Positions 28,177 to 46,458 of a stretch of DNA of 64,000 nucleotides are shown here, piece after piece. The notes beneath the pieces are model-generated. The model was not told where the DNA came from. It made no database searches and saw only the letters and a program-made list of their open reading frames with translations. The DNA comes from Streptomyces ambofaciens ATCC 23877 (GTDB lineage: Bacteria > Actinomycetota > Actinomycetes > Streptomycetales > Streptomycetaceae), in NCBI RefSeq assembly GCF_001267885.1, contig NZ_CP012382.1, positions 2,653,001 through 2,717,000 on the forward strand, read 5' to 3'. A program made the position numbers and the translations under genes. Position 1 is the stretch's first letter, and the number at the start of each line of letters is the position of its first letter.

Positions 28177-28198
28177 GACGACCATTCTCGCGCATGCT

Positions 28199-29460: not shown

Positions 29461-29593
29461 CCACGGCCACTCCTCCGGCGGGCGGTCCCTCGGACCTACG
29501 CCCCACGGCCCGCCCCTTCGATCGTGCGGACGATGCCCGAAGTGCCCTCCGTCGGCAAGAGTTGCCCGGACACCCACGGAGAGAGGGGCATCC

Positions 29594-30073
29594 ATGTCGT
29601 ACCCGGAGCCGCGCTACCTCGGCGAGAAGGGCGAGATCAACGCCGTGTTCAGGGGTGCCGACACCCCGCCCGACATCGTGGCCCCCAGTGGCACGGCCAC
29701 CCACTACCTCGCGAGCCACGCCTCCACCGGCGGGGAGTTCGGGTTGTACAAGGTGGACATGGGGCCCAGGGCGCCGGGCGCCAGGACGCACTTCCACCGA
29801 AGCATCTCGGAGTCCTTCTACGTCCTGTCGGGCGAGATCCAGCTGTACGACGGCGAGCGCTGGGTCACCGGCCGGCAGGGCGACTTCCTGTACGTGCCGG
29901 TCGGCGGACTGCACGCGTTCAAGAACGACAGCGACGACCCCGTGTCCATGCTCATGCTGTTCTCCCCGGGCGCCCCGCGCGAGGAGTACTTCGAGCGCGT
30001 CGCCGAGTTCGCGCGGCGCGGCGGTGAGGAACTGAGGGAGTTCCAGGTGAAGCACGACAGCTTCTTCCTGTGA
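29594..30073 (+). CDS. Cupin-domain protein
   Basis: 159-aa single-domain cupin_2 protein from ATG 29594, with GAGAGGGG about 6 bases upstream. Metal-ligand motif 1 is THFHRSISESFYVLSGE and motif 2 is GDFLYVPVGGLHAFKN. The histidine and glutamate ligands are intact, so it should bind a metal. Substrate unknown; it stands alone. Confidence 0.85.
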   Translation: MSYPEPRYLGEKGEINAVFRGADTPPDIVAPSGTATHYLASHASTGGEFGLYKVDMGPRAPGARTHFHRSISESFYVLSGEIQLYDGERWVTGRQGDFLYVPVGGLHAFKNDSDDPVSMLMLFSPGAPREEYFERVAEFARRGGEELREFQVKHDSFFL

Positions 30074-30188
30074 CCGCCGGCCGAGACTCTCAGGGAGAAC
30101 CCCGAGTCGGCGTACTGGGGTAATCCCCCCTGCGTTTCAGGTTGTTGCCCGGATGGGGAGGGCCCCGCACATCCGCGAGGCTCGTCGC

Positions 30189-31685
30189 ATGACGCAGCGC
30201 ACCCGCACCATCCGCAACGCCGCCCTCGTCGGCGTGTCCACCGCCCTCCTCGGCATCACCGCACCCGTCACCGCCTCCGCGGCCCCGGAGCGGGGCTCGT
30301 CCGAGTCCCTCGCCTGGGGCGCCTGCGAGGGCGCCGGACTCGATCCCCGTCAGCAGTGCGCCACCCTGCGGGTCCCGATGGACCACGCCGACCCGGACAG
30401 CCCTCGCATCGACATCGCCGTCTCGCGCATCCCGAGCGAGAAGCCGGCCGCCCGGCGCGGAGTGCTCCTGCTCATCGCCGGCGGACCGGGCGGCTCCAGC
30501 CTCAACGACCCGTCGGGAAAGGGGCAGAAGCTGCCCCAGGACGTCCGTGACACCTACGACCTCGTCGGGTTCGCGCCGCGCGGGCTCGCCCCGTCCACGT
30601 CCGTCGACTGCGGCCTGGACCACGGCGACCTCGCCACCTCCAGGCTCCGCCCGTGGCCGACCCCCGACGGCTCGGTGGACGCGAACATGGCCACCGCCCG
30701 CCGCATGGCCGAAGCCTGCGCCCGCAACGGCGGCGAGCTGATCAGACACCTGAGCACCGCCAACGAGGCCCGCGACATCGACCGCCTCCGGGCCGCGCTC
30801 GGCGAGCGGAGGATCTCCGCGTGGGGGACGTCGTACGGTACGTACGTGGGGGCGGTGTACGCGCAGAAGTTCCCGCACCGCACCGACCGCTTCGTGCTCG
30901 ACAGCGTCGACGACCCCGACCCGGCCCGCGTCAACCGCGCCTGGCTGGCCGCGCACGAGCAGGGCGTCGAGGACACCTTCCCGCACTTCGCGGCCTGGGC
31001 GTCCGAGCCGGGCAACCCCGACCGTCTGGCCCGCACGGCGGCGGAGGTGCGCCCGATGTTCCTGCGGCTCGCCGCCCGGCTGGACCGCGAGCCCCTCCCC
31101 TGGCCGGGAGCCAATCCGGCGGAGCTGAACGGCAACGTGCTGCGCCAGACCATGCTGGACAGCCTCTACTCCCCCGGCCGCTACCCGACGCTCGCCCGGC
31201 TGATGCGGGCCGCTCAGGAGGGCACCGTGCCGCCCGCACCCCAGGCACCGCCCGAGGCCGTGCTCCAGAACGTCACCGCCGTGGGCGCCGGGACGCTGTG
31301 CAACGACGTGGCCTGGCCCACGTCGCGGGCCGTGTACGAGAAGGGCGTCGCCGAGAGCCGCGCCAAGTACCCGCTCACGGCCGGGATGCCCCGCAACGCC
31401 ATGCTGTGCGCCGCCTGGCCGTACCCGCCGCGTGAGGCCCCGGTGCGGATCACCGACGAGGGCCCGTCCAACGTCCTGCTCGTCTCGAACGAGCGGGACG
31501 TCGCCACCCCGCTCGCCGGCGCCCTGAGGATGCGGGAGGCGCTCGGCCGGCGCGCGGTCCTGGTCACCGTGGACTCCACCGGCCACAACCCCTACCTCGC
31601 CAACGGCAACGCCTGCGGCGACCGGACGGCCTCCCGCTTCCTGGCGACCGGGCAGCGGCCCGGCGCGGACGTCCGCTGCGACTAG
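30189..31685 (+). CDS. Secreted alpha/beta-hydrolase, tripeptidyl-aminopeptidase type
   Basis: 498 aa from ATG 30189. A signal peptide runs to TASAAP. Oxyanion segment LLIAGGPGGSS, nucleophile elbow GTSYGTY (Ser), catalytic Asp in SNERDVATPL and His in VDSTGHNPYL, with the TAP-like C-terminal domain. Related to the Streptomyces SlpD/SlpE and Tap mycelium-associated exo-peptidases (S33 family). Its stop codon overlaps the stop of the converging response-regulator gene at CTAG. Confidence 0.88.
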   Translation: MTQRTRTIRNAALVGVSTALLGITAPVTASAAPERGSSESLAWGACEGAGLDPRQQCATLRVPMDHADPDSPRIDIAVSRIPSEKPAARRGVLLLIAGGPGGSSLNDPSGKGQKLPQDVRDTYDLVGFAPRGLAPSTSVDCGLDHGDLATSRLRPWPTPDGSVDANMATARRMAEACARNGGELIRHLSTANEARDIDRLRAALGERRISAWGTSYGTYVGAVYAQKFPHRTDRFVLDSVDDPDPARVNRAWLAAHEQGVEDTFPHFAAWASEPGNPDRLARTAAEVRPMFLRLAARLDREPLPWPGANPAELNGNVLRQTMLDSLYSPGRYPTLARLMRAAQEGTVPPAPQAPPEAVLQNVTAVGAGTLCNDVAWPTSRAVYEKGVAESRAKYPLTAGMPRNAMLCAAWPYPPREAPVRITDEGPSNVLLVSNERDVATPLAGALRMREALGRRAVLVTVDSTGHNPYLANGNACGDRTASRFLATGQRPGADVRCD

Positions 31686-32350
31686 CCGGCCCCCGGCGTC
31701 ACCAGCCCCGACTCGTAACCCACGATGACCAGTTGCGCCCGGTCCCGCGCCCCCAGTTTCCCCATGATGCGGCTGACGTGGGTCTTGGCGGTGAGCGGGC
31801 TCAGGCCCAGGGTGTCGGCGATCTCGGTGTTGTTGAGGCCGCGCGCGACCAGGGTGAGCACCTGGCGCTCGCGGTCCGACAGGCAGCCGGGACCGCCGGC
31901 ACCCACCGCCGGTGTGGCCGGGCTGCGCAGGAACCGCTCGATCAGCCGGGCCGTCGGGCCGGGCGACAGGAGCGCGTCGCCGGCGGTCACCGTGCGGATG
32001 GCGTCGAGGAGTTCGGCGGGCCGCGTGTCCTTCACCAGGAAACCGGAGGCGCCCGCGCGGAGCGCCTCCACGATGTTGTCGTCGGTGTCGTAGGTGGTGA
32101 GGACCAGCACCTTCACGCCCGCGAGGTCCTCGTCGGCCGCGATCAGCCGGGTCGCCTCGATGCCGTCCAGGTCGGGCATCCGGATGTCCATGACGACGAG
32201 GTCGGCGCGTTCGGCGCGGGCCCGTTCCACGGCCTGGCGGCCGGTGCCCGCCTCGCCGACGACCTCCATGTCGGGGGCCGACGCCACGAGCAGGGCGAAC
32301 GCGGCCCGGACGAGGTTCTGGTCGTCCGCGAGCAGCACGCGTATGGTCAT
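31682..32350 (-). CDS. LuxR/NarL-family response regulator
   Basis: 222 aa. Receiver domain with the acidic pair ADD, phosphoacceptor Asp ~55 in VVMDIRMPDLDG, Thr in LVLTTYD and Lys in VKDTRPAEL; the C-terminal HTH is LSDRERQVLTLVARGLNNTEIAD. Its ATG overlaps the stop of the kinase gene (ATGA), so the two form a coupled two-component system. Being downstream of an MMPL transporter suggests control of that pump or of envelope stress. Confidence 0.93.
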   Translation of the reverse strand: MTIRVLLADDQNLVRAAFALLVASAPDMEVVGEAGTGRQAVERARAERADLVVMDIRMPDLDGIEATRLIAADEDLAGVKVLVLTTYDTDDNIVEALRAGASGFLVKDTRPAELLDAIRTVTAGDALLSPGPTARLIERFLRSPATPAVGAGGPGCLSDRERQVLTLVARGLNNTEIADTLGLSPLTAKTHVSRIMGKLGARDRAQLVIVGYESGLVTPGAG

Positions 32351-33651
32351 CCGTCGCTCTCAGGTCTCTCAGGGGTCACGGTCGTCAGGAGCGGGGCCGT
32401 CCCGGGACGGGAGGCCTCCGCGGGAGCCGGCAGTACGGCCGTCACCTCGAAACCACCGGTGTCCCCGTCCCGCGGCCCGGCGTCGAGTGTGCCACCCACG
32501 CTGCGGGCCCGTTCGCGCATGCCGACGAGGCCGAACCCGGGGGTGCCGTCGAGCGCGGTGCCCCGGGGGCCGTCGGCGCGGGTGCCGTCGTCCGTGACGG
32601 ACAGGCGCAGGGCGCCCCGCTCGCCGCGCACCTCGACGCGGACGGACGGTTCGGGCCCCGCGTGACGTACGGCGTTGGTCAGCGCCTCCTGCACGATGCG
32701 GTAGGCGGCGGCGCCGACCGCGGGCGGCACGTCGCCGGCGTCCACCGCCAGCTCGGCCCGGGCTCCGGCGAGCCGGGCGGCCTCCACCAGGTCGGGCAGG
32801 CCGTGCAGTCCGGGCAGGGGACCGCGGGCGTCGGGCGCGTCCTGTCCCCGCAGGACCTCCAGCGTGGTCCGCAGTTCACCACGTGCGGAGCGGCAGGTCT
32901 CGGCGATGTCGTCGAGGGCCTTGGCGACCGCGGCCCGGTCCAGGCGCTCGGGGTCCGCGGTCAGGACGTGAGCGGCGACCGAGGTCTGCACGCCGATCAG
33001 GGTGATGCTGTGCGCCAACAGGTCGTGCAGGTCCCGGGCGACGCGCAGGCGTTCCTCGGCGACGCGGCGCCGGACCTCCTCCTCGCGGGTGCGTTCGGCA
33101 CGCTCGGCGCGTTCGACGATGGCGGCGACGTACTGGCGGTAGTAGCGGACGTCGACGCCGGCGAAGAGGATGGCGACCACCCAGCCGGAGATCCGGAGCA
33201 GCTCGACGGCCCGATGGGTGTCGACGGTGAGCATGATGCTCACGGACACCGTGAGGACCGCGACGCCCGTCAGGATCGTGCGCAGGGGGCGGCCGGTGAC
33301 GGCGAGCGTGTAGAGCGCGACGTAGGAGGCGGGGCCGGGCGCGGCGTGGTTGTTGTCCAGGGCGTGGTAGGGGCCGACCAGTGCCACCACCAGCGCGAGC
33401 ACCAGCAGCGGGTGCCGTCGCCGCCACACGATCGGCACGTGCGCGGTGAGCAGCAGCACCCAGCCCAGGGTGTCCGGGCGGCGCCCCTCGTCCGTGAACA
33501 GCGCCAGGCAGGCCGCCGCGGTGAACAGGACCGCGGCGAGCACGGCGTCGTTGCGGGTGCCGTGCTCGGCGGTGCGGGGGTCGCGGTTGATCACGGCCAT
33601 GACCCGCTCGCCGAGGCGGGGCCCGGACGCGTTCGGGGTGGGTGCGTGCAC
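32347..33651 (-). CDS. Sensor histidine kinase (HisKA_3/DesK type)
   Basis: About 434 aa from GTG 33651, chosen for the GGAGG 8 bases upstream; ATG 33600 is an alternative. Four to five membrane helices form the sensor, followed by a coiled dimerisation helix with the phosphoacceptor in RVARDLHDLLAHSITLIGVQ. The ATPase domain has YRIVQEALTNAVRHAG (N box) and a G box in GTPGFGLVGMRER. No extracellular domain of note, so it probably senses membrane state. Pairs with the overlapping response regulator. Confidence 0.9.
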   Translation of the reverse strand: MHAPTPNASGPRLGERVMAVINRDPRTAEHGTRNDAVLAAVLFTAAACLALFTDEGRRPDTLGWVLLLTAHVPIVWRRRHPLLVLALVVALVGPYHALDNNHAAPGPASYVALYTLAVTGRPLRTILTGVAVLTVSVSIMLTVDTHRAVELLRISGWVVAILFAGVDVRYYRQYVAAIVERAERAERTREEEVRRRVAEERLRVARDLHDLLAHSITLIGVQTSVAAHVLTADPERLDRAAVAKALDDIAETCRSARGELRTTLEVLRGQDAPDARGPLPGLHGLPDLVEAARLAGARAELAVDAGDVPPAVGAAAYRIVQEALTNAVRHAGPEPSVRVEVRGERGALRLSVTDDGTRADGPRGTALDGTPGFGLVGMRERARSVGGTLDAGPRDGDTGGFEVTAVLPAPAEASRPGTAPLLTTVTPERPESDG

Positions 33652-33718
33652 CCGCCCATCCTCCGCGACGGACGCGCCCCTCCGGGAGGGGAGGGGCGCG
33701 CTCCGGTCGTGGGACACC

Positions 33719-35821
33719 TCAGACACCGGCGGTCTCCCGCTCCCCGGCCCGCACCGGGGCGCCGGGCGCCCGGGAGAGCCGGCCCGGCCACCACACCCGG
33801 CGCCGCAGGGCGACGCTCGCGCTGGTGACCAGGTAGGTGCGGACGAGGAAGGTGTCGAGGAGGACGCCGACCGCGATGACGAAGCCCAGCTCGACGAGTT
33901 GCACCATCGGCATGCTGGTGAGCACCGCGAAGGTGGCCGCCAGGACCAGTCCCGCGGAGGCGATGACACCGCCCGTCGCGCGCAGCGCGGTGAGCGCGGC
34001 CTGCGTGGGTTCGGCGCCGTGGAGGGACTCCTCCCGCATGCGGTGCATGAGGAAGATGCCGTAGTCGACGCCGAGTGCGACCAGGAAGACGAACGACAGC
34101 AGGGGAAGGCCCGGGTCGGTGCCCTCGAAGCCGAGGAGCGGGCCGAAGACGAGTCCGCCGATGCCGAGGGCCGCGCCCCACACGGCGACGACGGCGGCGA
34201 CCAGGATCAGCGGCGCGATCAGGGAGCGCAGCAGGACCACGAGGATCAGCAGGACCGAGAGCAGCACGATCGGGATGACGATGACGGTGTCCCGGGCGTT
34301 GGTGTTCTCCAGGTCGAGCTGCTGGGCGCTGGGGCCGCCGACGTAGGAGCCGTCGAGTCTGTCGCGCAGGGCCTCGATGGTGGCGGTCTCGGCCGCCGAC
34401 TGGGGCGGGGCGGTGGCCAGCAGGGTCAGTTCGGTCCAGCCTCCCCCTCCGCCGCGGCCCTCCTCGGCGCTCGCGACGCCGGGGGTGTCCCGGGCGTCGG
34501 CGAGGGCGGCGCCGGCCCGGTCGGTGGGGGCGATGACGGTGATGGGCTGGGTGCCGCGCTCCGGGTAGGCGGCGGCGAGGGTCTCCATGGCGGCGATGGC
34601 GTCCGGCCTGCTGGTGAAGGAGTCCTCCTGCTTGAGGGAGCCGGGCAGGTTGAACGAGCCGAGCGCCAGCGCGCCGAGCAGGACGGCGCCGCCCACGAGC
34701 ACGGCACGGGGCCGGCGTTCGGCGGAGCCGCCCATCGCGGTCCACAGCGACCTGCGGGCCTTGGGCGTGCTGCCATGGCGGGGAACGAGCGGCCAGAAGA
34801 CGCGGCGGCCCAGCAGGACCAGGATCGCGGGCAGCAGCGTGAGCATCGCGGCCAGCGCGCACAGCACGCCCACGGTGCCCAGCGGGCCCATGCCGCGGCT
34901 GGAGTTGAGGTCGGCGGCGAGCAGGCACAGCAGTCCGGCGGCGACGGTGCCGGAGGAGGCGAGCACGGCGGGCCCGCAACCGCGCAGGGCGGCGAGCATC
35001 GCGTCGTGGGGGCGTTCGGTCCGGCGCAGTTCCTCGCGGTAGCGGGAGACCAGCAGCAGCGCGTAGTCGGTGCCGACACCGAAGACGAGGATGGTCATGA
35101 TGCCGGTGCTCTGACCGGAGACCGAGGTGCCGAACCACTGGTGGAGGCCGTAGGCGACGCCCATCGAGAGGTAGTCGGCGATCCCGGCGACGGCGAGCGG
35201 GACCAGCCACAGGAAGGGGCTGCGGTAGATGAGGATCAGCAGCAGGGCCACGACGGCGGCGGTGGTGTAGAGCAGGGGGCCGTCGAGCGAGTCGTAGACC
35301 TGGGCGGCGTCCGTGGCCAGTGCCCCCTCGCCGCCGACCGCCACGCTCAGCCCGTCGCCGCCCCGGGCGACCTCCCGGACGGCGTCGACCAGTGCGTCCC
35401 GGGCCTCCTCGTCCTGGCCGGGCTCGGTACTGGCGACCGGGTACATGAGGGTGGTGCCGTCCTCGGACGGGATGCCCGCCGGGCGGCCGGTCAGCCGGTG
35501 CGCGCCCGCGATCTCGTCGATCTGGCCGGCGGCGGTGGCCCGGTCGGCGGCGGTCAGTCCGGTGTCGCGGTGGTAGACGACGACCATCTCGGTGGCGCCG
35601 CCGCCCGGCAGCCGGTCCTGGATCTCGGCGACCCGGGTCGAGTCGGCGCTCGCCGGCAGGTAGTCGACGGGCCGGTCGCGCTGCACGTCCGACAGTTTCG
35701 ACGCGAACGGGGAGGCGATGGCCAGTACGGCGATCCACAGCCCGAGCACCAGCCAGGGCACGGCCCGGCGCCGTCCCCCGCCTGCCGCTCCCGGCGCCCC
35801 GCTTCTTCCTACGGCCCCCAT
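33719..35821 (-). CDS. MMPL/RND-family transporter
   Basis: 700 aa with the RND layout: a first membrane helix, an extracytoplasmic loop, five helices, then the same again. The MmpL hallmarks VGTDYALLLVSRYREELRR and GVDYGIFLMHRMREES are clear. Streptomycete members export lipids or small hydrophobic compounds. It lies 67 bp upstream of the two-component genes on the same strand and may be in their operon. Confidence 0.92.
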   Translation of the reverse strand: MGAVGRSGAPGAAGGGRRRAVPWLVLGLWIAVLAIASPFASKLSDVQRDRPVDYLPASADSTRVAEIQDRLPGGGATEMVVVYHRDTGLTAADRATAAGQIDEIAGAHRLTGRPAGIPSEDGTTLMYPVASTEPGQDEEARDALVDAVREVARGGDGLSVAVGGEGALATDAAQVYDSLDGPLLYTTAAVVALLLILIYRSPFLWLVPLAVAGIADYLSMGVAYGLHQWFGTSVSGQSTGIMTILVFGVGTDYALLLVSRYREELRRTERPHDAMLAALRGCGPAVLASSGTVAAGLLCLLAADLNSSRGMGPLGTVGVLCALAAMLTLLPAILVLLGRRVFWPLVPRHGSTPKARRSLWTAMGGSAERRPRAVLVGGAVLLGALALGSFNLPGSLKQEDSFTSRPDAIAAMETLAAAYPERGTQPITVIAPTDRAGAALADARDTPGVASAEEGRGGGGGWTELTLLATAPPQSAAETATIEALRDRLDGSYVGGPSAQQLDLENTNARDTVIVIPIVLLSVLLILVVLLRSLIAPLILVAAVVAVWGAALGIGGLVFGPLLGFEGTDPGLPLLSFVFLVALGVDYGIFLMHRMREESLHGAEPTQAALTALRATGGVIASAGLVLAATFAVLTSMPMVQLVELGFVIAVGVLLDTFLVRTYLVTSASVALRRRVWWPGRLSRAPGAPVRAGERETAGV

Positions 35822-35976
35822 CTGACGGGCTCCCTCCGCTGGATGTCCGGTTCGGTGTCCAGACTTCCGGCGGCGGGGAGCCGACGCGTCGGGCGTGCGG
35901 GCGAGTCCGCGGCTACTGCCAGGGGTGACGCCCGGCCGTCCTTACTCCCCGAGGAGTAGCGGGGGCGGTGGTGCGG

Positions 35977-37092
35977 TCAGGCCCGGTCGACCATCCAGTT
36001 GCCGTCCTCCTCGGCGTCGACCCGTACCTCCAGCTCCCGCAGGCCCATGCCGGCGTCCCAGAGCTCCTTGAAGCGCTTCAGCCGGTCCCGTACGTAGTCC
36101 TGGCGCGCGGTGAGCCGGGTCCGGACGTTGACGTCCCTCAGGTCCTGCTCGATCTCGAACGACACCTCCTCGTCGTAGAGGATGAAGTCGTTGGTGGTGC
36201 CGCGCTGGAGGTGCGGGGGCAGTTCGGGCAGGACGGCCGCGCGGACGTCGATGCGCCGCAGTTCCTGCTCCTCGCAGAGCCTCAGCAGCCGGTCGTCGAG
36301 CTCCCGCGCGCTCTCCAGCAGGAACAGCCGGCGCACCGACACGCCCTGTTCGTCGATCGCCTCCTGCTGGGCGTCGAGGTAGCGTCCGGCGGGCTCGCTG
36401 TTCCAGAACTCCCGGTCGACGGAGGTGCTGGTGGCGCAGATGGAGTGCTCGGCGGCGCGGGTGAGGGTGAGCATCCAGTCGTGGTTCTCGCCCGGGCACT
36501 CGGCGCTCTGGTTGGTGAGGTCCGCCATGTGGCCGACCACGCGGGTCATCTCCAGGTGGACGAAGGTGTGGAGGATCGAGGGCTCCGGCAGCAGCACGTC
36601 GGCGAAGCCCTTGGCCAGGTCGGGCACGCTGTCGATGCGGGCCCGGTCCAGCGGCGGGTAGGACTCCGCCGTCCGGTGGTCCGCCTGCGTGACGTGGCTC
36701 TCGACCAGCTGTTTCACGTCCTCGGTGTGCCGGGTCAGGCCGGTCCGCAACTCGTCGTCGTACCGGGTCAGGCCCTCCCGGACGGCGGCGGTGTTCTCGG
36801 CCAGGGCGCTCTCCACCCGGCGGGTGTGCTCCTCCAGCCGCACGTGGCCCGGGCGTGGGGCCAGGCCGAGGACGTACTGGACGGCCATGGCGGCGCCGGC
36901 GCAGAGCACGGCGGCCGCGAACTGCCGCAGCGTGCCGTCCTCCGGGCTCAGCAGCGCCGTGACGCTCCAGAACAGGGCGCCGACGACCAGGGCCACCAGC
37001 AGCATGCGTGCCCATGGCGACTCCCCTCTCGGGTCGGCCGGGCCCCGGGTGCGGGCCGTGTCGTCGGGGCGGGGTGACTGTGCCGTGCTCAT
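35977..37092 (-). CDS. Membrane-anchored coiled-coil protein, PLD-like C-terminus
   Basis: 371 aa, not confidently recognised. Two adjacent membrane helices (MLLVALVVGALFWSVTALL; FAAAVLCAGAAMAVQYVLGL) are followed by a heptad-like helical stretch (~90-140). The C-terminal cytoplasmic domain has HSICATSTSVDREFWNSE, a long helix, GVSVRRLFLLES and DFILYDEEVSFEIEQDL. The strand/helix rhythm resembles phospholipase-D-like domains, but no HxK(x4)D motif is visible, so it would be inactive or a sensor. It is the last gene of the SCO2521-2525-type cassette, 69 bp after the previous one, and could anchor that system to the membrane. Confidence 0.6.
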   Translation of the reverse strand: MSTAQSPRPDDTARTRGPADPRGESPWARMLLVALVVGALFWSVTALLSPEDGTLRQFAAAVLCAGAAMAVQYVLGLAPRPGHVRLEEHTRRVESALAENTAAVREGLTRYDDELRTGLTRHTEDVKQLVESHVTQADHRTAESYPPLDRARIDSVPDLAKGFADVLLPEPSILHTFVHLEMTRVVGHMADLTNQSAECPGENHDWMLTLTRAAEHSICATSTSVDREFWNSEPAGRYLDAQQEAIDEQGVSVRRLFLLESARELDDRLLRLCEEQELRRIDVRAAVLPELPPHLQRGTTNDFILYDEEVSFEIEQDLRDVNVRTRLTARQDYVRDRLKRFKELWDAGMGLRELEVRVDAEEDGNWMVDRA

Positions 37093-37161
37093 CTCGCTTC
37101 TCCCCCCGTTGGGATACGCGTCGGATCGGGGTGGGATGTGCGTGGGAGGCGCCGGCGCCGG

Positions 37162-38142
37162 TCAGGGGACCGGCTCCACCTCCCGGTGGGCTGAGGGAAT
37201 GGCGTGCAGGGTGAGCTGGTCGCGGATGCGCTGCACCAGGGCCTGCCACTGCCGGGTGAAGCCGGGCCGCTCCTCGAGCGGGTCCCACAGCGGGGCCAGC
37301 CCGCCGGCCACCCGGGCCGCGGGCATCCACAGGTGCAGCAGGTGGTCGACGGCCGGACGCAGCGTCCTGACGACGGCGCCCGCGTCCTCGGCGGCTCCCT
37401 GGCCCAGCCGGATGCCGTCGAACATGCGGACCACGGTGGTGAGCAGCCAGTCGTGCAGGGCGAGGTCGTCGCAGAGCACGGCGAGCTCGGCGCCGTCGGT
37501 GCCCTCGGGCACCCGGAGCCGTACGGTGCGCAGTTCGTCCTCGGCGAGGGTGAAGCGCTCGAGGGAGGGGCCGTCGCCCGGGGCGGCGGGCAGGGCCACC
37601 CAGCGCAGCCGGGTCGGGCGGGACCGGAAGGGCGGACGCTGGTCGAGCAGGGGGTGGCGCAGCAGCCGGGTGAGCAGCCCGTCGGCGATCAGTCCGACGT
37701 CGAGGTCGCCGTGCCGTCCGCCGTCGAGCACACCCCGCGCGACCGCCTCGTGGGGCAGTTTCCCGAGCGGTTCGACCACGCCGGGCCGCACCAGGTACTC
37801 CCCCCAGGGCCGCCGCTGGTCCGGGCCGGACGCGGGCACCCGGAAGCGGGCGGAGGTCTGCAGCAGGCGTCCCTCGGTGAGCGCGGCGCGTGCGGCGACG
37901 GTGCCGACCGCGCGGACGCGGGCGCCGGTGGCGCTGGGCAGCGGGCAGTCGACGCCGGTGAGGGTGTCGGGGGAACGCGCGTAGAGGCCCGGGCGCTCGG
38001 AGAGCAGGACGCGTTCGTCGGCGCGCAGGGCCAGGAGCTGGGCGGCGGACCGGATGTCCAGGGCCTGCCGGGCGGGCAGCAGGCAGGTGCGGACCTCGCC
38101 GCAGACGAGGTCCGCGCCCGGTGTGCTCTGCCGCGGCGCCAC
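37162..38142 (-). CDS. SCO2521-family protein
   Basis: 326 aa from GTG, one base after the stop of the preceding gene, so surely co-translated. I recognise it as the SCO2521 family, an uncharacterised actinobacterial family always found in this cassette. Visible features are an N-terminal beta-rich part (VCGEVRTCLLPARQALDIRS), a middle Pro/Arg-rich zone and a C-terminal helical region with HLLHLWMPAARVAGGL. No signal peptide, membrane helix or enzymatic motif. Cytosolic; role unknown. Confidence 0.75.
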   Translation of the reverse strand: MAPRQSTPGADLVCGEVRTCLLPARQALDIRSAAQLLALRADERVLLSERPGLYARSPDTLTGVDCPLPSATGARVRAVGTVAARAALTEGRLLQTSARFRVPASGPDQRRPWGEYLVRPGVVEPLGKLPHEAVARGVLDGGRHGDLDVGLIADGLLTRLLRHPLLDQRPPFRSRPTRLRWVALPAAPGDGPSLERFTLAEDELRTVRLRVPEGTDGAELAVLCDDLALHDWLLTTVVRMFDGIRLGQGAAEDAGAVVRTLRPAVDHLLHLWMPAARVAGGLAPLWDPLEERPGFTRQWQALVQRIRDQLTLHAIPSAHREVEPVP

Positions 38143-38143
38143 G

Positions 38144-39109
38144 TCACGGCCCCGCGTAGTAGACGTAGGACACCCGGTCGGCGACCGAGTCGGGGACGGG
38201 CGTGCGCTCCCGGCCGGAGCGTTCGGCGACCTGTGCGAGCGCTCCCGGGTCGACCTCGATCTGGTCGAGGATCACGCGGACGGCGTGCTCGACGGGCAGG
38301 AACCGGGTGGGCAGCACCGAGCAGGTCCGGTAGGCGGCGAAGGGGTCCGCGCGTGCGTCGAGCCGCAGCAGGGAGGGCAGTTCGTCCCAGTCGTCCGGGA
38401 AGCCGGTGCCGGTGTGCGGCTGGGGGACGAGGACGGCGTCGCCCTCGTTGCGCAGCAGTCCGAGGCGGGCGAGCTGCCACACGGCCGCGAGGAAGGGGCA
38501 GGACCAGGTGCGGTGCCCGTCGGCGTCGTCGCTCCACAGCTCGACGTCGAGGAAGACGGAGTGGCGGCGGGCGGCGGTCTCCTTGGGCGGCTGCCAGGCG
38601 GTGGCGCGCTTCATCGCCTGCGGGGCACGGGCGACGGGGCTGCGCTCGCCGTTGGCCAGCCAGCCGGTCTGCGCGGTGGGCGGGCGCAGACCGTGACTGC
38701 CGGGTGGCGGCGACTCGACGATGCGGCCGGCCACCGCCTCCGCGACGGGCACCTTGCCGGTGACGGCGCAGCCGGACTCGCGGGCGAGGTAGTCGACGCT
38801 CAGCCCGGCCCGCTCGGCCTCCGCGAGCAGCATGGGCACGACGTCGGCGGGGGTGGAGAAGCGGGTGAAGTAGTCGTCGATGAGGAAGCAGGTGCTGATC
38901 CGGGCGCGTTTGCCGCCGGCCCGGGCGGTGGCGGCGGTGCGGGCCGCCTCCACCCAGGGGCGTACTTCGGCGAAGTGCCGGCGCAGGCGGGCGGGGCCGG
39001 CCTCGAAGTCCTCCATGTACAGGTGGCCCAGCTCCAGGGAGAGGTGGGCCAGCGGCACCGACTGGGTGCGCGGCTCGGCGGCGGTCTCGCGGAACACCTC
39101 TTCCGTCAC
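38144..39109 (-). CDS. SCO2522-family protein
   Basis: 321 aa from GTG 39109, which overlaps the stop of the P-loop gene (GTGA). The frame is open further upstream but that part is antisense noise within the P-loop gene. Recognised as the uncharacterised SCO2522 family. Segments such as LAHLSLELGHLYMEDF, ISTCFLIDDYFTRF and SVFLDVELWSDD suggest an alpha/beta fold with acidic clusters (DD, DVE) that could hold metal, but no named motif fits. Cytosolic, cassette member. Confidence 0.75.
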   Translation of the reverse strand: MTEEVFRETAAEPRTQSVPLAHLSLELGHLYMEDFEAGPARLRRHFAEVRPWVEAARTAATARAGGKRARISTCFLIDDYFTRFSTPADVVPMLLAEAERAGLSVDYLARESGCAVTGKVPVAEAVAGRIVESPPPGSHGLRPPTAQTGWLANGERSPVARAPQAMKRATAWQPPKETAARRHSVFLDVELWSDDADGHRTWSCPFLAAVWQLARLGLLRNEGDAVLVPQPHTGTGFPDDWDELPSLLRLDARADPFAAYRTCSVLPTRFLPVEHAVRVILDQIEVDPGALAQVAERSGRERTPVPDSVADRVSYVYYAGP

Positions 39110-40029
39110 GGCCGCCCCCAGTGCGAGTCGTCGGTGAGCCGCCGGGCGATCTCCTCCAGCGCTTCCAGGGTCTCCTTGTTGGCGATCTGGGTGGAGAGCA
39201 CGTCCTCCTCGGTGATCAGCTGCTCGCGCCACTGGAGTATCGGCTCCAGCGGTACGACACCGAGTACCACGCTGTCGCCGATCCGGTGCTCGGCGGCGAG
39301 CCGGCGCAGCGCCTCGTCGCACGTTTGCATCCAGGCGGCCTGGGCGGGCGAGCCCTGGGACCACAGCGGCGACTCGGGATCCGGTACGGCGGCGCGCACG
39401 AAGCGGATCGCGGCGCGCAGGGCGTCCTCGTCGTGGCCCCGGTCGACGCCGCCGCCGATGATGCCGTGGTCCGCGTGGACCAGGCCGGAGGCGGCGATCA
39501 CGTGCTGGCGCGTCCAGCGGTGGAAGACGAGCCAGCGGAAGGGCACGTTGCGCATCCGGGGGTGGGCGGTGGCCGCGAGGACCATGTCGACCGCGTAGCT
39601 GCGGCCGGCGCTGAGATCCACGACGGTGATGTCGAACTCGCCGTTCAGCCGCAGCAGCAGGTCGACGCACCGCTCCAGGGTCTCCTCGCCGGTGGCGAAC
39701 TCGCCGCCGCCCGCGTCGCCGGGGAACAGGACGAGCCGGCCGGACTGGTTGGGCCGGGCACGCAGCAGGGGGTGTTCGGTCTGGCGCCAGACGTCGATCC
39801 TGGCCGGCTCGGCGGTCTCTCCCTCCAGGTAGGAGTGGAGGCCGCGTTCCTCGGTGCCGCGCATGGCGCCGGGCACGTCGAAGACCGCGGCGGCGGTGGG
39901 CGAGCCGAAGTCGAAGTCCACGTAGGCCACGTGATCGCCGGTGAGGGCCCGCTGGTAGGCCAGGTTGGCGCTGGTCACGGACCGCCCGGTGCCTCCTTTG
40001 TCGGAGGCGGCGAAGACGAGCACCCTCAC
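39106..40029 (-). CDS. SCO2523-family variant P-loop protein (ParA/MinD-like)
   Basis: 307 aa from GTG 40029 overlapping the previous stop (GTGA). The N-terminus MRVLVFAASDKGGTGRSVTS is a deviant Walker A of the SIMIBI/ParA-MinD class. The signature lysine (K11) is present, but the usual P-loop lysine is arginine (R16). HVAYVDFDFGSPTA fits the switch-I/A' region and FDITVVDLSAG the Walker B region. ParA/MinD relatives dimerise on DNA or membranes and position other proteins. The arginine may weaken or abolish hydrolysis. Centre of a five- to six-gene cassette. Confidence 0.8.
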   Translation of the reverse strand: MRVLVFAASDKGGTGRSVTSANLAYQRALTGDHVAYVDFDFGSPTAAAVFDVPGAMRGTEERGLHSYLEGETAEPARIDVWRQTEHPLLRARPNQSGRLVLFPGDAGGGEFATGEETLERCVDLLLRLNGEFDITVVDLSAGRSYAVDMVLAATAHPRMRNVPFRWLVFHRWTRQHVIAASGLVHADHGIIGGGVDRGHDEDALRAAIRFVRAAVPDPESPLWSQGSPAQAAWMQTCDEALRRLAAEHRIGDSVVLGVVPLEPILQWREQLITEEDVLSTQIANKETLEALEEIARRLTDDSHWGRP

Positions 40030-41870
40030 ACCTCCTGCGCGGCGGCTCCCCTGGCCTGGGCCAGGGTGTCGAGTTCCTGCAGGACGGGGAGGGCCAGCGC
40101 GAAGGCGGTGGCGGGCCGTTCGTCGACCAGGCCGCGGGCGTGGTCGAGGCGGCTCTCGATGCTCCGCATGGCGCGGGCCCGGCTGCCGTCGGCGGCGGCG
40201 GACGCCTCCAGCTGTTCCTTGCCGAACAGGTGGGTGGCCTCGCTGAGCAGTTCGCGGGCCAGCTCGGCGAGTTCGGGGCTGCGGATGGGCTGCTGCTCGT
40301 AGAGGTTGCGGGCGGCGACGAGGCATTCGGTGACGCGCTCGGTGATGCTCCAGGACATGCGCAGGCCGGCGGTTCGCGCGTCGGGGTAGACGGACCGCAC
40401 GTCGTCCCAGAGGCCGGCGCCGTCCTCGTCGTCGATGCGCCGGGACCACAGGTGCTCGAAGGCCTGCTCGGCGAGGCGCAGCAGCCGGTCCTGCGCGCCG
40501 ATGTTCCGCGACAGCGTGGCCAGCTGGATGATCCGCTTGAGCAGTTGGGCGGAGTAGTCGGTCATCCGCCACAGGAGGACCCCGCCGGAGTGCTCGGACC
40601 CGGCGAGCGGCATGGTGACGCCGGGGGTGTGCAGCCTGATGGTGGGGTCGTCCTTGGTCATCCGGCTGGTGACCCGGCCCCGGTCGGCGAGGCGCTCCAT
40701 GACGGCGACGGTGCGGGTGAGGTCGTCGTCGGTCGCCTTCCGGCGGACCAGGTCGTGGACGAGGATGGCCGCGACGGTCAGCGAGAAGTACTCGGACTCC
40801 AGGCGCAGGCCGGTGGTCTGCCAGGGCAGGTCCTCCAGAGGCCAGCGCTCGCCGCCGAAACGGGCGATCGCGGACCAGTACTGCTGGCTGAGTTCCCAGC
40901 GCAGGCGCAGCGCCTCGGCGAGCTTCTGCTGGTCGGCGTCGAGCAGTCCGAGGGTGAGGGTGCGGTCGGAGAACAGGTCCTGGATGCCGTCGAGGGCGAC
41001 GACGGTGAAGTACACGTAGGGCAGCCGGTCGGCGATGCCGTCGGGCTGCCCGTGGACCTGGACGTCCAGGTCGGTGACGGTCGGCGCGTCCTTGACGATG
41101 CCCCAGGCCCAGCCGCACTCGAAGAGCTGGCTCTCGTCGCGGATGCCCTCGTCGACCTGGATGCCGCGGGTCAGGCTCTCGATGATGGTGGCGCGCAGGG
41201 GGCGTAACTTGCGGGAGAACTGCTGGAGGACGGCCCGGTCGGACTGTCTGCCCTGTCCGACGACCTGGATGAGCCGCTTGCCCTGCTCGGACTCGGCGTC
41301 GAAGACGTTGACGGTGAAGGAACGCAGCAGGCTGATCATGGCGGCGGTCAGCCGGGCGTTGGTGGCGTCCCTCAGCTCGGCGATCGCCCTGAGCACCTCG
41401 GGGCGGGTCGTGGTGCCCTCGTAGACCTTGAGGAACCCGAGGGTGGCGAGGCAGAGCGTGACGGACATGGAGTAGGAGTCCACCACGCCGAGCTGGCTCT
41501 GTTCGTGGGTGATCTCGCCGTCGGGCTCGGCGGACCTGAAGTAGTGTCCGCCGGCGAAGGTGGGGCTGTCGTCCGTGCCGGTGTGCGTGCGCATGAACTG
41601 GGTCAGCGCGGTGATCAGGTTGGGCGGGATCTCGAGCCGGCTGCCGATCCGGTCGAGGGCGCGCAGGACGTCGCGTTCGGTGGTGTCGGGCTGGTCGAGC
41701 CGGAAGGCGGGGACCTCGGTGGCGGGATAGAGCAGGCAGAGCAGGCGCTCGGCGTCCGCGACGCTGCTCAGCCCGTCGGTGTCCCCCCGGACGAGCTTCC
41801 CGTCCTCGAACGAGTGACGGGCCATGGCCTGCCAGATTTCCAGCATGTGCTGGCGTGGCTTGATCTGCAT
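40026..41870 (-). CDS. SCO2524-family protein
   Basis: 614 aa, the largest cassette member, recognised as the uncharacterised SCO2524 family. Almost entirely helical in appearance, with many charged amphipathic stretches (LEIWQAMARHSFEDGKLVRG, EQAFEHLWSRRIDDED, ITERVTECLVAARNLYEQQ) and no membrane segment or catalytic motif that I can name. It could be a scaffold, comparable in size to repeat-helical partners of P-loop switches. Starts 54 bp after the methyltransferase; ends overlapping the P-loop gene. Confidence 0.75.
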   Translation of the reverse strand: MQIKPRQHMLEIWQAMARHSFEDGKLVRGDTDGLSSVADAERLLCLLYPATEVPAFRLDQPDTTERDVLRALDRIGSRLEIPPNLITALTQFMRTHTGTDDSPTFAGGHYFRSAEPDGEITHEQSQLGVVDSYSMSVTLCLATLGFLKVYEGTTTRPEVLRAIAELRDATNARLTAAMISLLRSFTVNVFDAESEQGKRLIQVVGQGRQSDRAVLQQFSRKLRPLRATIIESLTRGIQVDEGIRDESQLFECGWAWGIVKDAPTVTDLDVQVHGQPDGIADRLPYVYFTVVALDGIQDLFSDRTLTLGLLDADQQKLAEALRLRWELSQQYWSAIARFGGERWPLEDLPWQTTGLRLESEYFSLTVAAILVHDLVRRKATDDDLTRTVAVMERLADRGRVTSRMTKDDPTIRLHTPGVTMPLAGSEHSGGVLLWRMTDYSAQLLKRIIQLATLSRNIGAQDRLLRLAEQAFEHLWSRRIDDEDGAGLWDDVRSVYPDARTAGLRMSWSITERVTECLVAARNLYEQQPIRSPELAELARELLSEATHLFGKEQLEASAAADGSRARAMRSIESRLDHARGLVDERPATAFALALPVLQELDTLAQARGAAAQEV

Positions 41871-41924
41871 CCCCGCACCCCTCGTACAGATCTCGTTGCC
41901 CTGTGTTCAGCATGGTCCCCGTTC

Positions 41925-42674
41925 CTACGGGACGGCAACCTCCGAATTGCGCCGCCCCAGGGCGAGGAGCATTCCCTCGTGTCCCGGCCGCACCATGTGG
42001 TGCAGATCGTGGATCTCCAGCTCGGCGGTGAACGGAGCGAGGCTCTCTCTGACCCGGTCCTCGTTCACCCGGTAGGCCGGATAGTCGTGATCGCCGACGC
42101 GATAACCGACCGACTCCTTCATGAACGCGGCGGCGAAAGGCGCACGCTCACCGAGGGCGTTCATGAAGCACCGCACACCCCGCTTGAACTCGTCGGGACA
42201 CTCGGACATGGAATCGGCGACGAAGAACATGGTCCCGAGGTCCCAGCGCCGGTGTCCGTCGAGGTCGAACAGGTTGCCCCGCTCCACCCGGACGATCTCG
42301 CCGAACCGGCTCCTCGGCTCGACTGCGGCGTAGGCGGGGGCCTCACGGAGCACGTCCCAGAACGCGTCCCACGCCGTGTCGAAGCCCCCGGAGGAGACCT
42401 GCCTCTCCAGGTACTCGACATTCGGACGCGCGAATTCCAGCAGAAGGATCTTTTCGCACCAGGGGAGCATCGAGAGCGCGGGATAGAGATTCGCCCCGGC
42501 ACCGGCGTCGACGCCCCGCACCGAATCCGGCACGCCCCCGGAGAAACAGCGCCCGAAGTGGTCGCGCATCAACCGGACGATCAACAGGTCCACTTCGAGC
42601 GGCGTCCGGTAATTGTTGTCGACGTACACCTCGGGATCGAACTTCGACCAAGGTGCGTCGGCGTTGCGATCCAT
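41925..42674 (-). CDS. SCO2525-family SAM-dependent methyltransferase
   Basis: 249 aa from ATG 42674, with AGGGTG upstream; in-frame starts at 42695 and 42827 are possible. Class I methyltransferase fold of the NNMT/PNMT/TEMT kind: FDPEVYVDNNYRT at the start, SAM motif GVDAGAGANLYPALS, acidic post-II LLEFARPNVEYLERQ, and FFVADSMSECPDEF. Relatives N-methylate small amines. First gene of the cassette. Divergent from a GNAT gene across ~275 bp that contains a CTTGC/GCAAG dyad at 42821-42835. Confidence 0.8.
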   Translation of the reverse strand: MDRNADAPWSKFDPEVYVDNNYRTPLEVDLLIVRLMRDHFGRCFSGGVPDSVRGVDAGAGANLYPALSMLPWCEKILLLEFARPNVEYLERQVSSGGFDTAWDAFWDVLREAPAYAAVEPRSRFGEIVRVERGNLFDLDGHRRWDLGTMFFVADSMSECPDEFKRGVRCFMNALGERAPFAAAFMKESVGYRVGDHDYPAYRVNEDRVRESLAPFTAELEIHDLHHMVRPGHEGMLLALGRRNSEVAVP

Positions 42675-42950
42675 AGTCACCCTGCCGCGTTCCATTCGAA
42701 TCCGGACAAGCCCAGTGCCGTGCACGGTAGGCCACCAGGACACGTCGAGACAGCCGGGAAACCGCCAGACCTCGTCCGCCGGGCGCACGTCGGGCGCATG
42801 GACGCACACCTTAACTCGCCCTTGCACGAGGCAAGTTGGAAGCTCACTCTAGCCAGGAGGGGGCGGCGGCCGCCACACGATGCCGCGTACTCCTGACGAA
42901 TGAAAAGCGCACCCGTCGAGTTGACCTCGCACGTCCTGACTGGGGGTTGC

Positions 42951-43511
42951 ATGACCGCCGAACCGCTGGAACGTTCCCTGGCCCGCCGCGATCGGCTCAC
43001 GGATGCCGGCCCTCCTCGTCCCGACGAACCGCCGCTGGTCCTGCGCACGGCCCAGGAGGCCGACCTGCCCGAACTGCGGCGGCTCGACGAGGAGGTCTTC
43101 CAGGACGTCGCCTATCCCGGCTTCCTCCTGCGCCAGCTCTTCGACATGTACGAGGAGCACTTCCTGGTGCTGGACGACGGCACGGGCCGGCTGCGCGGCT
43201 ACGTGCTCGCCGCCACCCGGGCGCTCGGCGCGGACAGCTGGATACTCGGCCTGTGCGTGACGCAGGACCGCCGGCGTCACGGGCTGGGCCGGGAGCTGAT
43301 GACGGAGGTGCTGGACCGGCTGTGCCGGGACGGCATCCGGGTGGTGCGCCTGACCGTGGAACCCGCCAACCTCGCCGCCATCTTCCTCTACCGAGGCCTG
43401 GGCTTCCGCCCGGAGGAGCCCGACGGCGGCCTGCGCCCGGACTACTTCGGCCCCGGCATGCACCGCCAGATCCTGCGCCTGGACCTGACGGACCAGGCGT
43501 CGCCGCTCTGA
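42951..43511 (+). CDS. GNAT-family N-acetyltransferase
   Basis: About 186 aa from ATG 42951, with a G-rich run upstream; ATG 42900 is a possible longer start. RimI-like GNAT fold: VLRTAQEADLPELRRLDEEVF (motif C/D), the acetyl-CoA loop in VTQDRRRHGLGRELM, and motif B VEPANLAAIFLYRGLGF. Substrate unknown. Divergently transcribed from the SCO2525-type operon and possibly sharing its control region, but it need not be part of it. Confidence 0.85.
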   Translation: MTAEPLERSLARRDRLTDAGPPRPDEPPLVLRTAQEADLPELRRLDEEVFQDVAYPGFLLRQLFDMYEEHFLVLDDGTGRLRGYVLAATRALGADSWILGLCVTQDRRRHGLGRELMTEVLDRLCRDGIRVVRLTVEPANLAAIFLYRGLGFRPEEPDGGLRPDYFGPGMHRQILRLDLTDQASPL

Positions 43512-43574
43512 ACGGTGGCCGGACCGCGCCGGCCGCGGCCGCGATCGCCGGGGCCGGGCGGCTGCCCGGGCCGG

Positions 43575-44270
43575 TCAGGAAGGCGTGCCCGCCGATTCCA
43601 GGAGGCGGGTCACGTCGTCGGAGCAGATGGTCAGGGCCGCGCCCACCGTGGCCAGCGCGTCGCGTTCGGCGGGGGTGTAGGGGCCGTCGGCCAGGGCGAT
43701 GCGGGCGCCCTGGAGGAGGATGGACTCGCGGCCGACGGTCGCCAGGTGGGGGGCCAGGGGGTCCAGGGCCTCGTGGAGTTCTATGGCGAGGCCGGGCACG
43801 CAGGGCTCGCCGTGGACCCGGCCGGTGTCCGCCTCCAGCGCCTCGACGAGCGCGCCCAGCTGCTCCTCGGTGCAGTCCTCGAAGCCGGCCGCGCGCACCG
43901 CGACGGCGGCCGTCTCCAGCGACGTACGGGAGCAGGCGCCGCCCGCGGCGAGGACGGCGAGGGCGACGGTGTGCACGGCGTCGCGGAGCATCGCGGAGAA
44001 GCGGGTGGTGGTCGGGTGGTCGAGGACGTCGGTGCCGTAGTGGCGGCGGCAGGCCGCGCACTCGACGGTCGGCGCGGACTCGCCGCGCGGCAGCACGGGC
44101 ACGCCGAGCAGGGTGAAGCGGCGGCGGCCGGTGAGCCGCTGGTAGTTGCGGTCGCCCCCGCAGCCCGGGCAGAAGAACTCGCCGTCCCCGACGGGCGTCC
44201 ACGCGGTACGCGTGCCCAGGATGCGCGGCAGCCGGACAGCTCGGCCCTGTCGTTCCCGTCCAGGCAGCAC
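43575..44270 (-). CDS. Zinc-ribbon TerB-like protein
   Basis: 231 aa from GTG 44270, with GGAGG 7 bases upstream; the frame continues further upstream. The N-terminal zinc ribbon has FFCPGCGGDRNY and VECAACRRHYG. The rest is a TerB-like helical bundle (TTRFSAMLRDAVHTVALAVL; ALADGPYTPAERDALATVGA), the fold of tellurite-resistance TerB and metal-sensing relatives. No other ter genes are nearby, so a tellurite role should not be assumed. Confidence 0.75.
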   Translation of the reverse strand: MLPGRERQGRAVRLPRILGTRTAWTPVGDGEFFCPGCGGDRNYQRLTGRRRFTLLGVPVLPRGESAPTVECAACRRHYGTDVLDHPTTTRFSAMLRDAVHTVALAVLAAGGACSRTSLETAAVAVRAAGFEDCTEEQLGALVEALEADTGRVHGEPCVPGLAIELHEALDPLAPHLATVGRESILLQGARIALADGPYTPAERDALATVGAALTICSDDVTRLLESAGTPS

Positions 44271-44400
44271 GTCGCACCTCCGTAACCGCGCGACAGCATC
44301 GTCGCGCTGGCGTGATGTTAGCCACATCACCTACGTGGAGTCAGTACCCCGGAGGAGACCTTTCCGTGACCTGCACACGGAGTTGGCCGGTATACGACGG

Positions 44401-44433
44401 GGCCCCGCCCGCCGGAGAACGGCGGGCGGGGCC
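44401..44433 (-). terminator. leuA terminator hairpin
   Basis: GGCCCCGCCCGCCG (44401-44414) and CGGCGGGCGGGGCC (44420-44433) form a perfect 14-bp stem with a GAGAA loop, 21 bp after the leuA stop. Confidence 0.8.
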
Positions 44434-44454
44434 TGTAACCACCGATTCGGCTGG

Positions 44455-46458
<2,004 letters not shown>

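What the first reader, a model, noticed from the sequence alone, without database searches (positions are those of the whole stretch)
35977..42674. Uncharacterised six-gene cassette: methyltransferase, helical scaffold, variant P-loop switch, two unknowns, membrane coiled-coil
Five genes recognised as SCO2525, 2524, 2523, 2522 and 2521 families lie in one strand with GTGA overlaps or a 1-bp gap, followed after 69 bp by a two-helix membrane protein with a PLD-like domain. Such coupling implies a complex. A ParA/MinD-type protein with a large helical partner and a membrane anchor suggests a spatial organiser or signalling switch; the methyltransferase adds a modification step. No function is known to me for any member. 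This is the best candidate here for an undescribed system.
Basis: partly seen in the sequence, partly recalled or inferred. Interest (0 to 1): 0.87.

Follow-up and report, generated by a model that had tools for sequence, protein, structure and literature searches.

The report
Uncharacterised seven-gene Streptomyces cassette
A block of seven neighbouring bacterial genes is inherited almost as one unit by some Streptomyces and their relatives; predicted shapes suggest enzyme-like parts working at the membrane, and a rare codon suggests a link to the life cycle, but what it does is not known.

Summary
The cassette is real and tightly co-inherited. Five genes are the NCBIfam SCO2525, 2524, 2523, 2522 and 2521 families. 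The sixth is a two-helix membrane protein, mostly called 'hypothetical' in databases. In 131 Streptomyces-genus genomes, 2523 and 2524 occur in the same 23; GNAT, methyltransferase and membrane gene each in 22 of those 23. In the 19 genomes that could be checked it lies in one chromosomal slot, between recO and a leuA-like gene.

The predicted structure of 2524 is an (alpha/alpha) toroid, as in sugar epimerases and terpene cyclases. That of 2522 resembles the class I tRNA-synthetase Rossmann core but lacks HIGH and KMSKS. 2523 has Arg instead of the Walker-A Lys in 30 of 30 sequences. The membrane protein has a DUF6879-like domain without an HKD motif. Cassettes are rich in TTA (bldA-type) codons: 84 of 101 have one. 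SCO2525 has a published growth/morphogenesis role.

Best reading: a membrane-tethered modifying or biosynthetic complex tied to development (0.35). No substrate, interaction or activity has been shown.

The parts
42900..43511 (+).
   Evidence: Pfam Acetyltransf_1 54.4 bits; cassette-type GNAT (117 bits or more) in 22 of 131 genomes, all cassette-bearing, best match in a cassette-free genome 41.6 bits; co-directional with the methyltransferase in 11 loci of family f85
42675..42899 (.). 225-bp divergent intergenic region between GNAT and methyltransferase; conserved blocks among 49 close sequences, window included
   Evidence: no consensus sigma-70 match
41925..42674 (-). SCO2525-family SAM-dependent methyltransferase (249 aa, ATG start), NNMT/PNMT/TEMT-like
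   Evidence: NF040568 311 bits; PF01234 26.0 bits against 25; G54 D56 G58 G60 N62 invariant in 26 of 26
40026..41870 (-). SCO2524 family (614 aa): predicted (alpha/alpha) toroid plus C-terminal helices
41205..41207 (-). TTA (UUA) leucine codon 222 of the SCO2524 gene, the only TTA in the seven genes of the window
   Evidence: TTA enrichment
39106..40029 (-). SCO2523 family variant P-loop protein (307 aa), KGGTGRS: Walker-A Lys replaced by Arg
   Evidence: NF040564 505 bits; R16 invariant 30 of 30; 30 of 30 also match NF047398 AAA_KGGVGR at E<=0.001 (window copy 38.7 bits, cut-off 90)
38144..39109 (-). SCO2522 family (321 aa): predicted class I aminoacyl-tRNA synthetase-like (HUP) Rossmann core without HIGH/KMSKS
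37162..38142 (-). SCO2521 family (326 aa), fold not predicted, no known domain
   Evidence: NF040565 415 bits; no Pfam match shared by more than 1 of 38 members
35977..37092 (-). Two-helix membrane protein (371 aa) with a variable linker and a DUF6879-like C-terminal domain
   Evidence: most named rows among the 120 listed relatives read 'hypothetical protein'

Best explanation
A seven-gene accessory operon of multicellular actinobacteria encodes a membrane-tethered modifying or biosynthetic complex. SHOWN: the genes, their order and their co-inheritance. PREDICTED STRUCTURE: SCO2524 is an (alpha/alpha) toroid; SCO2522 is a class I synthetase-like Rossmann domain with its own invariant polar residues. 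INFERRED: these two form the catalytic core, acting on a small molecule or a peptidyl, lipid or aminoacyl substrate. SCO2523, a MinD/ParA-like protein with Arg in place of the Walker-A Lys, acts as a slow or non-hydrolysing nucleotide-bound assembly factor; SCO2521 is a constant partner. The two-helix DUF6879-like protein anchors the complex or senses at the membrane. The methyltransferase and GNAT are dispensable tailoring enzymes (missing in some lineages). Expression is tied to differentiation through UUA codons read by the bldA tRNA, so the output tunes growth and development rather than being essential.
For: Co-inheritance: 2523 and 2524 in the same 23 of 131 genomes; GNAT, methyltransferase and membrane gene in 22 of those 23 each. 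Synteny across four families. Enzyme-type folds for 2524 and 2522. In 2522, S24, E26, G28, H29, T73, C74, D78, D79, Y80, D106, Y107, R110, E111, H183, S184 and D188 are invariant in 41 of 41. Methyltransferase motif I intact in 26 of 26. The membrane gene follows the core, and in three loci sits inside it. TTA codons in 84 of 101 distinct Streptomyces cassettes; TTA/Leu 0.0054, against 0.0029 in slot neighbours and 0.0011 in 20 stretches chosen arbitrarily from 11 cassette-bearing genomes. SCO2525 described as necessary for normal growth or morphogenetic, and sco2521-sco2526 as HupS-controlled.
Against: No sequence-level relationship of 2522 to CysRS or MshC (hhalign probability 0.1% and 0.9%; control pair 100%); HIGH and KMSKS are absent; Foldseek alone gave no E below 0.1 for 2522 and none at or below 0.001 for 2524. 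The toroid fold is shared by non-enzymes (complement C3/C4/C5 domains are in the same list). No substrate, interaction or activity is shown. The growth phenotype is for SCO2525, a gene that some lineages lack. The cassette is missing from most Streptomyces sampled (108 of 131), so it is no general developmental component. The gene caller behind the TTA comparison is crude, sequences are related to one another, slot neighbours are enriched too, and 32 of 82 overlapping runs of seven called genes also had a TTA.
Confidence: 0.35

Rival explanations
1. One reading: a ParA/MinD-like spatial organiser or signalling switch with a large helical partner and a membrane anchor; the methyltransferase tunes it.
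For: 2523 is recognisably SIMIBI (CbiA 27.3 bits against 25.4); signature Lys K11 and residues D38, D40, D138 and G142 are invariant in 30 of 30; a two-helix membrane protein is co-inherited.
Against: Walker-A Lys is Arg in 30 of 30; by general knowledge (recalled) loss of this Lys usually stops the ATPase cycle that drives ParA/MinD patterning. The 'helical partner' model is a toroid found mostly in enzymes; the 2522 model is an enzyme-type Rossmann domain; no ParB- or MinE-like partner was recognised by family scans of the seven proteins.
Confidence: 0.15
2. A defence or self-limiting conflict system of multicellular bacteria, related in logic to the NTP-dependent conflict systems of Kaur et al. 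2020, in which inactive MinD/ParA-like domains occur.
For: All 30 SCO2523 sequences match the NF047398 KGGVGR-type model at E<=0.001 (window copy below its cut-off); Kaur et al. describe inactive MinD/ParA-like domains in actinobacterial conflict and peptide-processing systems (passages and section 24); accessory presence (23 of 131) in a length-variable recO-leuA slot; the membrane protein is the fastest-diverging part (median 33% identity against 65-71% for the core).
Against: No convincing PADLOC match among the six proteins scanned (best 19.1 and 11.8 bits; the GNAT was not scanned there); no recognisable nuclease, TIR, vWA or MoxR part in the seven proteins; core proteins well conserved; UUA codons and the SCO2525 phenotype point to growth and development.
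Confidence: 0.15
3. A tRNA- or aminoacyl-tRNA-directed machine: SCO2522 uses or mimics a class I synthetase core (as cyclodipeptide synthases do without HIGH/KMSKS; recalled), with GNAT and methyltransferase modifying the aminoacyl product.
For: Class I synthetase-like fold without the ATP-site motifs; GNAT and methyltransferase linked.
Against: No tRNA-binding domain recognised in the seven proteins; cyclodipeptide synthases are not among the listed structural matches, which excludes nothing; no sequence link to CysRS or MshC.
Confidence: 0.1

Closest known systems
NCBIfam SCO2521-SCO2525 families (NF040565, 566, 564, 567, 568)
   Same: All five families match far above cut-off, in the order of the S. 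coelicolor numbers
   Different: Model names give no function beyond 'methyltransferase' and 'variant P-loop'; no NCBIfam model matched the membrane protein, and the GNAT matched only general GNAT models below their cut-offs
Inactive MinD/ParA-like (KGGVGR) domains of actinobacterial conflict and FxSxx peptide systems (Kaur et al. 2020, PMC7159879; passages and one section read)
   Same: Arg for the Walker-A Lys; 30 of 30 sequences match NF047398 at E<=0.001
   Different: Stand-alone gene, no vWA/MoxR, AP-ATPase or peptidase recognised in the seven proteins; window copy below the family cut-off
Class I aminoacyl-tRNA synthetases and MshC
   Different: No HIGH at the expected place, no KMSKS, no sequence-profile relation to CysRS/MshC; the chain appears to end before the KMSKS region (inferred from aligned ranges and recalled motif positions)
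N-acylglucosamine/cellobiose 2-epimerases and other (alpha/alpha) toroids
   Different: No PDB sequence match at E<=5; extra C-terminal helices; catalytic residues not compared

Membership tests
SCO2521-2525 NCBIfam families | Whole-protein score over the curated cut-off | tested here: met
   5 of 5
ParA/MinD (deviant Walker A) ATPases | KGGxGK[ST] with the P-loop Lys | tested here: not met
   P-loop Lys is Arg (R16) in 30 of 30; signature Lys K11 kept
ParA/MinD (deviant Walker A) ATPases | Recognisable CbiA/ParA domain | tested here: met
   PF01656 27.3 bits against 25.4
KGGVGR variant ATPase domain NF047398 | Score over cut-off 90 | tested here: not met
   38.7 bits for the window copy; 30 of 30 sequences match at E<=0.001
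Class I aminoacyl-tRNA synthetase | Rossmann catalytic-core fold (predicted) | tested here: met
Class I aminoacyl-tRNA synthetase | HIGH and KMSKS motifs | tested here: not met
   HxGH in 1 of 41, at residue 200 (not in the HIGH region); KMSKS-type pattern 0 of 41; an invariant E-x-G-H sits at residues 26-29
(alpha/alpha) toroid enzymes (AGE, GH76, terpene cyclases) | Toroid fold (predicted) | tested here: met
(alpha/alpha) toroid enzymes (AGE, GH76, terpene cyclases) | Catalytic residues in the cavity | not tested
   no residue-level superposition available
NNMT/PNMT/TEMT methyltransferase | PF01234 over cut-off and glycine-rich SAM motif I | tested here: met
   26.0 against 25 bits; G54, D56, G58, G60, N62 invariant in 26 of 26
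GNAT acetyltransferase | Pfam GNAT model over cut-off | tested here: met
   PF00583 54.4 bits against 20.7; G130 invariant in 24 of 24
Phospholipase D superfamily | HxKxxxxD motif | tested here: not met
   0 of 22
DUF6879 | PF21806 over cut-off | tested here: inconclusive
   window copy 12.2 against 23.9 bits; 17 of 22 members match at E<=0.1, best 3.1e-9
Known anti-phage systems (PADLOC) | Match to a defence protein model | tested here: inconclusive
   six proteins scanned; only weak partial matches, 19.1 and 11.8 bits; the library holds only described systems

The most novel reading that the evidence does not exclude
The cassette makes and displays a new class of developmental signal: a synthetase-fold ligase (SCO2522) lacking HIGH/KMSKS and a toroid enzyme (SCO2524) build an aminoacyl-sugar or aminoacyl-lipid conjugate (mycothiol-like logic, MshC/MshD by analogy only). 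The conjugate is tailored by GNAT and methyltransferase, gated by a non-hydrolysing MinD-like protein, sensed by the membrane DUF6879-like protein, and timed by bldA UUA codons.
Probability: 0.08. Interest if true: 0.88.

Novelty: categorically new. Interest (0 to 1): 0.6.

Why it matters
Seven co-inherited genes with two enzyme-type folds, an Arg-variant MinD-like protein and a mostly unnamed membrane protein match no described system that I found. In the held library of open papers, searches for SCO2520-SCO2526 found three papers, whose passages on these genes give no mechanism; other literature was not searched. The individual families were already named by NCBI, and SCO2525 already has a reported phenotype (Gehring 2004, not held here), so what is new is the unit as a whole, its sixth and seventh members, the predicted folds and the UUA enrichment. 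Together these make an old unexplained developmental phenotype testable.

Tried and rejected
Profile search of the four core families against PDB sequences: nothing for 2524 or 2522, one chance-level match for 2521; weak ParA/Mrp/MinD matches for 2523. Pfam scans of 2522 and 2521 relatives: only scattered single-member matches. PADLOC: nothing convincing. A homologue search for 2522 returned 2298 proteins at E<=1; the 120 listed are named SCO2522 family, hypothetical/uncharacterised, or unnamed, and carry PF28097, a Pfam accession that my own Pfam scans did not list; no functional lead. The class I synthetase relation was tested by hhalign with actinobacterial MshC (13 sequences kept of 15 loci) and CysRS (26 of the 30 loci taken): rejected at sequence level, control positive. 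There the labels MshC and CysRS were inferred from score and length, rows were chosen by a HIGH-type pattern, and some ORFs carry extra or fused sequence. No further universally linked gene stood out in 24 distant loci; that clustering was noisy because six-frame ORFs were used. No fusion of two families in one ORF was printed, whose output was cut in the middle. No sigma-70-type promoter or intrinsic-terminator match in 35500-43600, which says little for Streptomyces. Cyclodipeptide synthases, MshC and LanC were not among the listed structural rows; that excludes nothing. The structures of 2521, 2523 and the membrane protein, and any complexes, were not predicted (two jobs, single chains only).

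Counts to read with care: the 134 loci mix unnamed and named genomes that partly overlap (110 Streptomyces loci give 101 distinct by 2524 DNA). Of the 268 confirmed stretches only 80 were kept by the tool. 2522 and 2521 were not searched genome-wide on their own; they were seen beside 2523 in the cassette loci. In one search, 19 of 23 cassette-bearing and 98 of 108 cassette-free genomes entered the gap count; for the other 14 the two flanking genes are on different contigs or one was not found. In one search hits covering under 60% of a profile were dropped, so the membrane gene entered with 64 loci. SCO2523 also has weak P-loop matches below its cut-off in other genomes (42 of 131 at E<=0.001; 60 of 296 across the phylum, 5 of them over cut-off); only matches over cut-off were counted as cassette.
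Full report
OBSERVATION. NCBIfam recognises the first five far above cut-off and matches nothing in the sixth. Two junctions are 4-nt GTGA overlaps, one is a 1-bp gap and one 69 bp; the 2525-2524 junction is a 54-nt gap, not an overlap.

CO-INHERITANCE. The tool samples 131 genomes of the window's genus. That genus is Streptomyces by inference: for example contig G343:C1 (10,677,137 bases) has the length of a named S. cyaneochromogenes chromosome. SCO2523 is over cut-off in 23 of 131 and SCO2524 in the same 23 (in G356 the gene is in two pieces on two contigs). The methyltransferase is over cut-off in 22, all within those 23; the exception, G360, has fragments with stops. The membrane protein is found in 23: 22 of the 23 plus an isolated copy in G314. 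The divergent GNAT at 42900-43511 is found as the cassette type (117 bits or more) in 22, all within the 23; the best match in a genome without the cassette is 41.6 bits. The genome that lacks both GNAT and membrane gene is G327. There, about 2.4 kb separates 2523 and 2522 and the P-loop reads KGGACRS, which looks like decay. SCO2522 and SCO2521 were not searched separately but lie beside 2523 in all of these loci.

ORDER. In 134 loci plus the window (135), 104 have exactly GNAT< MT> 2524> 2523> 2522> 2521> membrane>. Over the 134 loci, 2524 and 2523 are in 134, 2522 in 133 and 2521 in 132; the losses are in two loci cut by contig ends. The methyltransferase is in 121, the GNAT in 122 and the membrane gene in 125. 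Three loci carry the membrane gene between 2523 and 2522, and 11 loci, all of family f85, carry the GNAT in line with the methyltransferase. The five fetched loci of family f84 lack methyltransferase and GNAT but keep the core and the membrane gene. So the core is 2524-2521, the membrane protein is nearly constant, and methyltransferase and GNAT are frequent partners. The membrane gene's move into the core, and the GNAT's change of orientation, argue that these are functional links and not only shared ancestry of a chromosome segment.

DISTRIBUTION AND SITE. In 394 genomes sampled across the class, 37 have a 2524 relative, in 7 of 137 genera and four families; across the phylum, SCO2523 is over cut-off in 5 of 296. 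Flanking the cassette are a leuA-like gene (131 of 131 genomes; Pfam) and recO (130 of 131). Where both flanks are on one contig, they are 10.2-37.9 kb apart in 19 cassette-bearing genomes (median 24.4 kb), and 0.6-57.5 kb apart in 98 cassette-free genomes (median 5.7 kb; 22 below 1.5 kb). In all 19 the cassette hits on that contig lie between the two flanks (for G356 only the core half). The cassette thus sits in one variable slot of an otherwise conserved neighbourhood. I infer one ancestral arrival or presence with many losses in this genus.

SCO2523 keeps the signature Lys and residues D38, D40 and D138 but has Arg for the P-loop Lys in 30 of 30 sequences. All 30 also match the KGGVGR domain model at E<=0.001; the window copy is below its cut-off. 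Kaur et al. 2020 (PMC7159879; passages and section 24 read) describe inactive MinD/ParA-like domains in actinobacterial conflict and peptide systems. SCO2521 remains without a fold. The membrane protein has two hydrophobic helices in 22 of 22 and an HKD motif in 0 of 22. Its C-terminal part is DUF6879-like in 17 of 22. It diverges fastest: over the Streptomyces loci L066-L088 the median identity to the window copy is 33%, against 65-71% for the four core proteins, 49% for the methyltransferase and 53% for the GNAT.

UUA CODONS. Of 101 distinct Streptomyces cassettes, 84 hold at least one TTA codon. TTA makes up 0.54% of leucine codons in the cassette, 0.29% in crudely called slot neighbours (69 of 713 genes with TTA) and 0.11% in 20 stretches picked at round coordinates from 11 cassette-bearing genomes (9 of 195 genes). 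It is concentrated in 2522 (34 of 100), 2524 (55 of 100), the methyltransferase (16 of 97) and the membrane gene (19 of 64), lower in the GNAT (6 of 97), and at baseline in 2523 (3 of 101) and 2521 (5 of 99). In 2524 the TTA lies at three alternative main columns (20, 16 and 12 sequences), which suggests repeated gain or retention rather than one inherited site. In 24 loci of other genera the share is 0.41%, mainly in 2522 (10 of 24), with few in 2524 (3 of 24) and none in the membrane gene (0 of 19). The window's own TTA is codon 222 of 2524 (41207-41205). Against this: the gene caller is crude, the sequences are related, slot neighbours are enriched too, and 32 of 82 overlapping runs of seven called genes had a TTA. 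In S. [quoted passage not shown] Control by bldA is therefore a supported inference, not shown.

LITERATURE. Searches for SCO2520-SCO2526 gave three papers (passages read). One reports sco2521-sco2526 as an operon in a HupS-only cluster and SCO2525 as necessary for normal growth (PMC11472566). One lists SCO2525 as an HrdB-controlled gene with a morphogenetic role (PMC6344877). One refers to mutagenesis of SCO2525 (PMC3017869). Two cite Gehring et al. 2004 (J Bacteriol 186:3570) for this; the third holds words of that title, and I did not check its reference number. Gehring 2004 is not held; I recall only its abstract. That SCO2526 is the GNAT and SCO2520 the membrane gene is my inference from gene order.

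JUDGEMENT. The genes are real, linked and unexplained. The folds favour a modifying or biosynthetic complex at the membrane over a ParA-type spatial organiser, and the codon and phenotype evidence favours a role in growth and differentiation over defence. None of these functional steps is shown. Novelty is rated 'categorically new' for the system as a whole, since it fits no described system that I tested; its five central protein families were already named by NCBI.

Noticed in passing
window 41205-41207 and loci L066-L169, L223-L229: TTA leucine codons are about five times as frequent in these cassettes as in 20 arbitrarily chosen stretches of cassette-bearing genomes, mainly in 2522, 2524, the methyltransferase and the membrane gene.
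   Followed up: partly
L084 (G327:C52): Apparently decaying cassette: about 2.4 kb between 2523 and 2522, P-loop KGGACRS, no membrane gene and no GNAT nearby.
   Followed up: partly
G356 C131:57529-60347 and C141:133143-134051: The SCO2524 gene is split over two contigs whose pieces share about 99 profile positions; rearrangement or misassembly.
   Followed up: no
G314:C20:151538-152245: Isolated relative of the membrane protein in a genome without the cassette.
   Followed up: no
window 27430-46455: The recO to leuA-like interval is a length-variable slot in the genus (0.6-57.5 kb in cassette-free genomes), possibly a hotspot for accessory genes.
   Followed up: partly
window 31682-35821 (-): A response regulator, a histidine kinase and an MMPL transporter lie just downstream of the cassette in the same slot; no link to the cassette seen.
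   Followed up: no
L074 (G296:C46): Two tandem copies of the membrane-protein gene behind the core.
   Followed up: no
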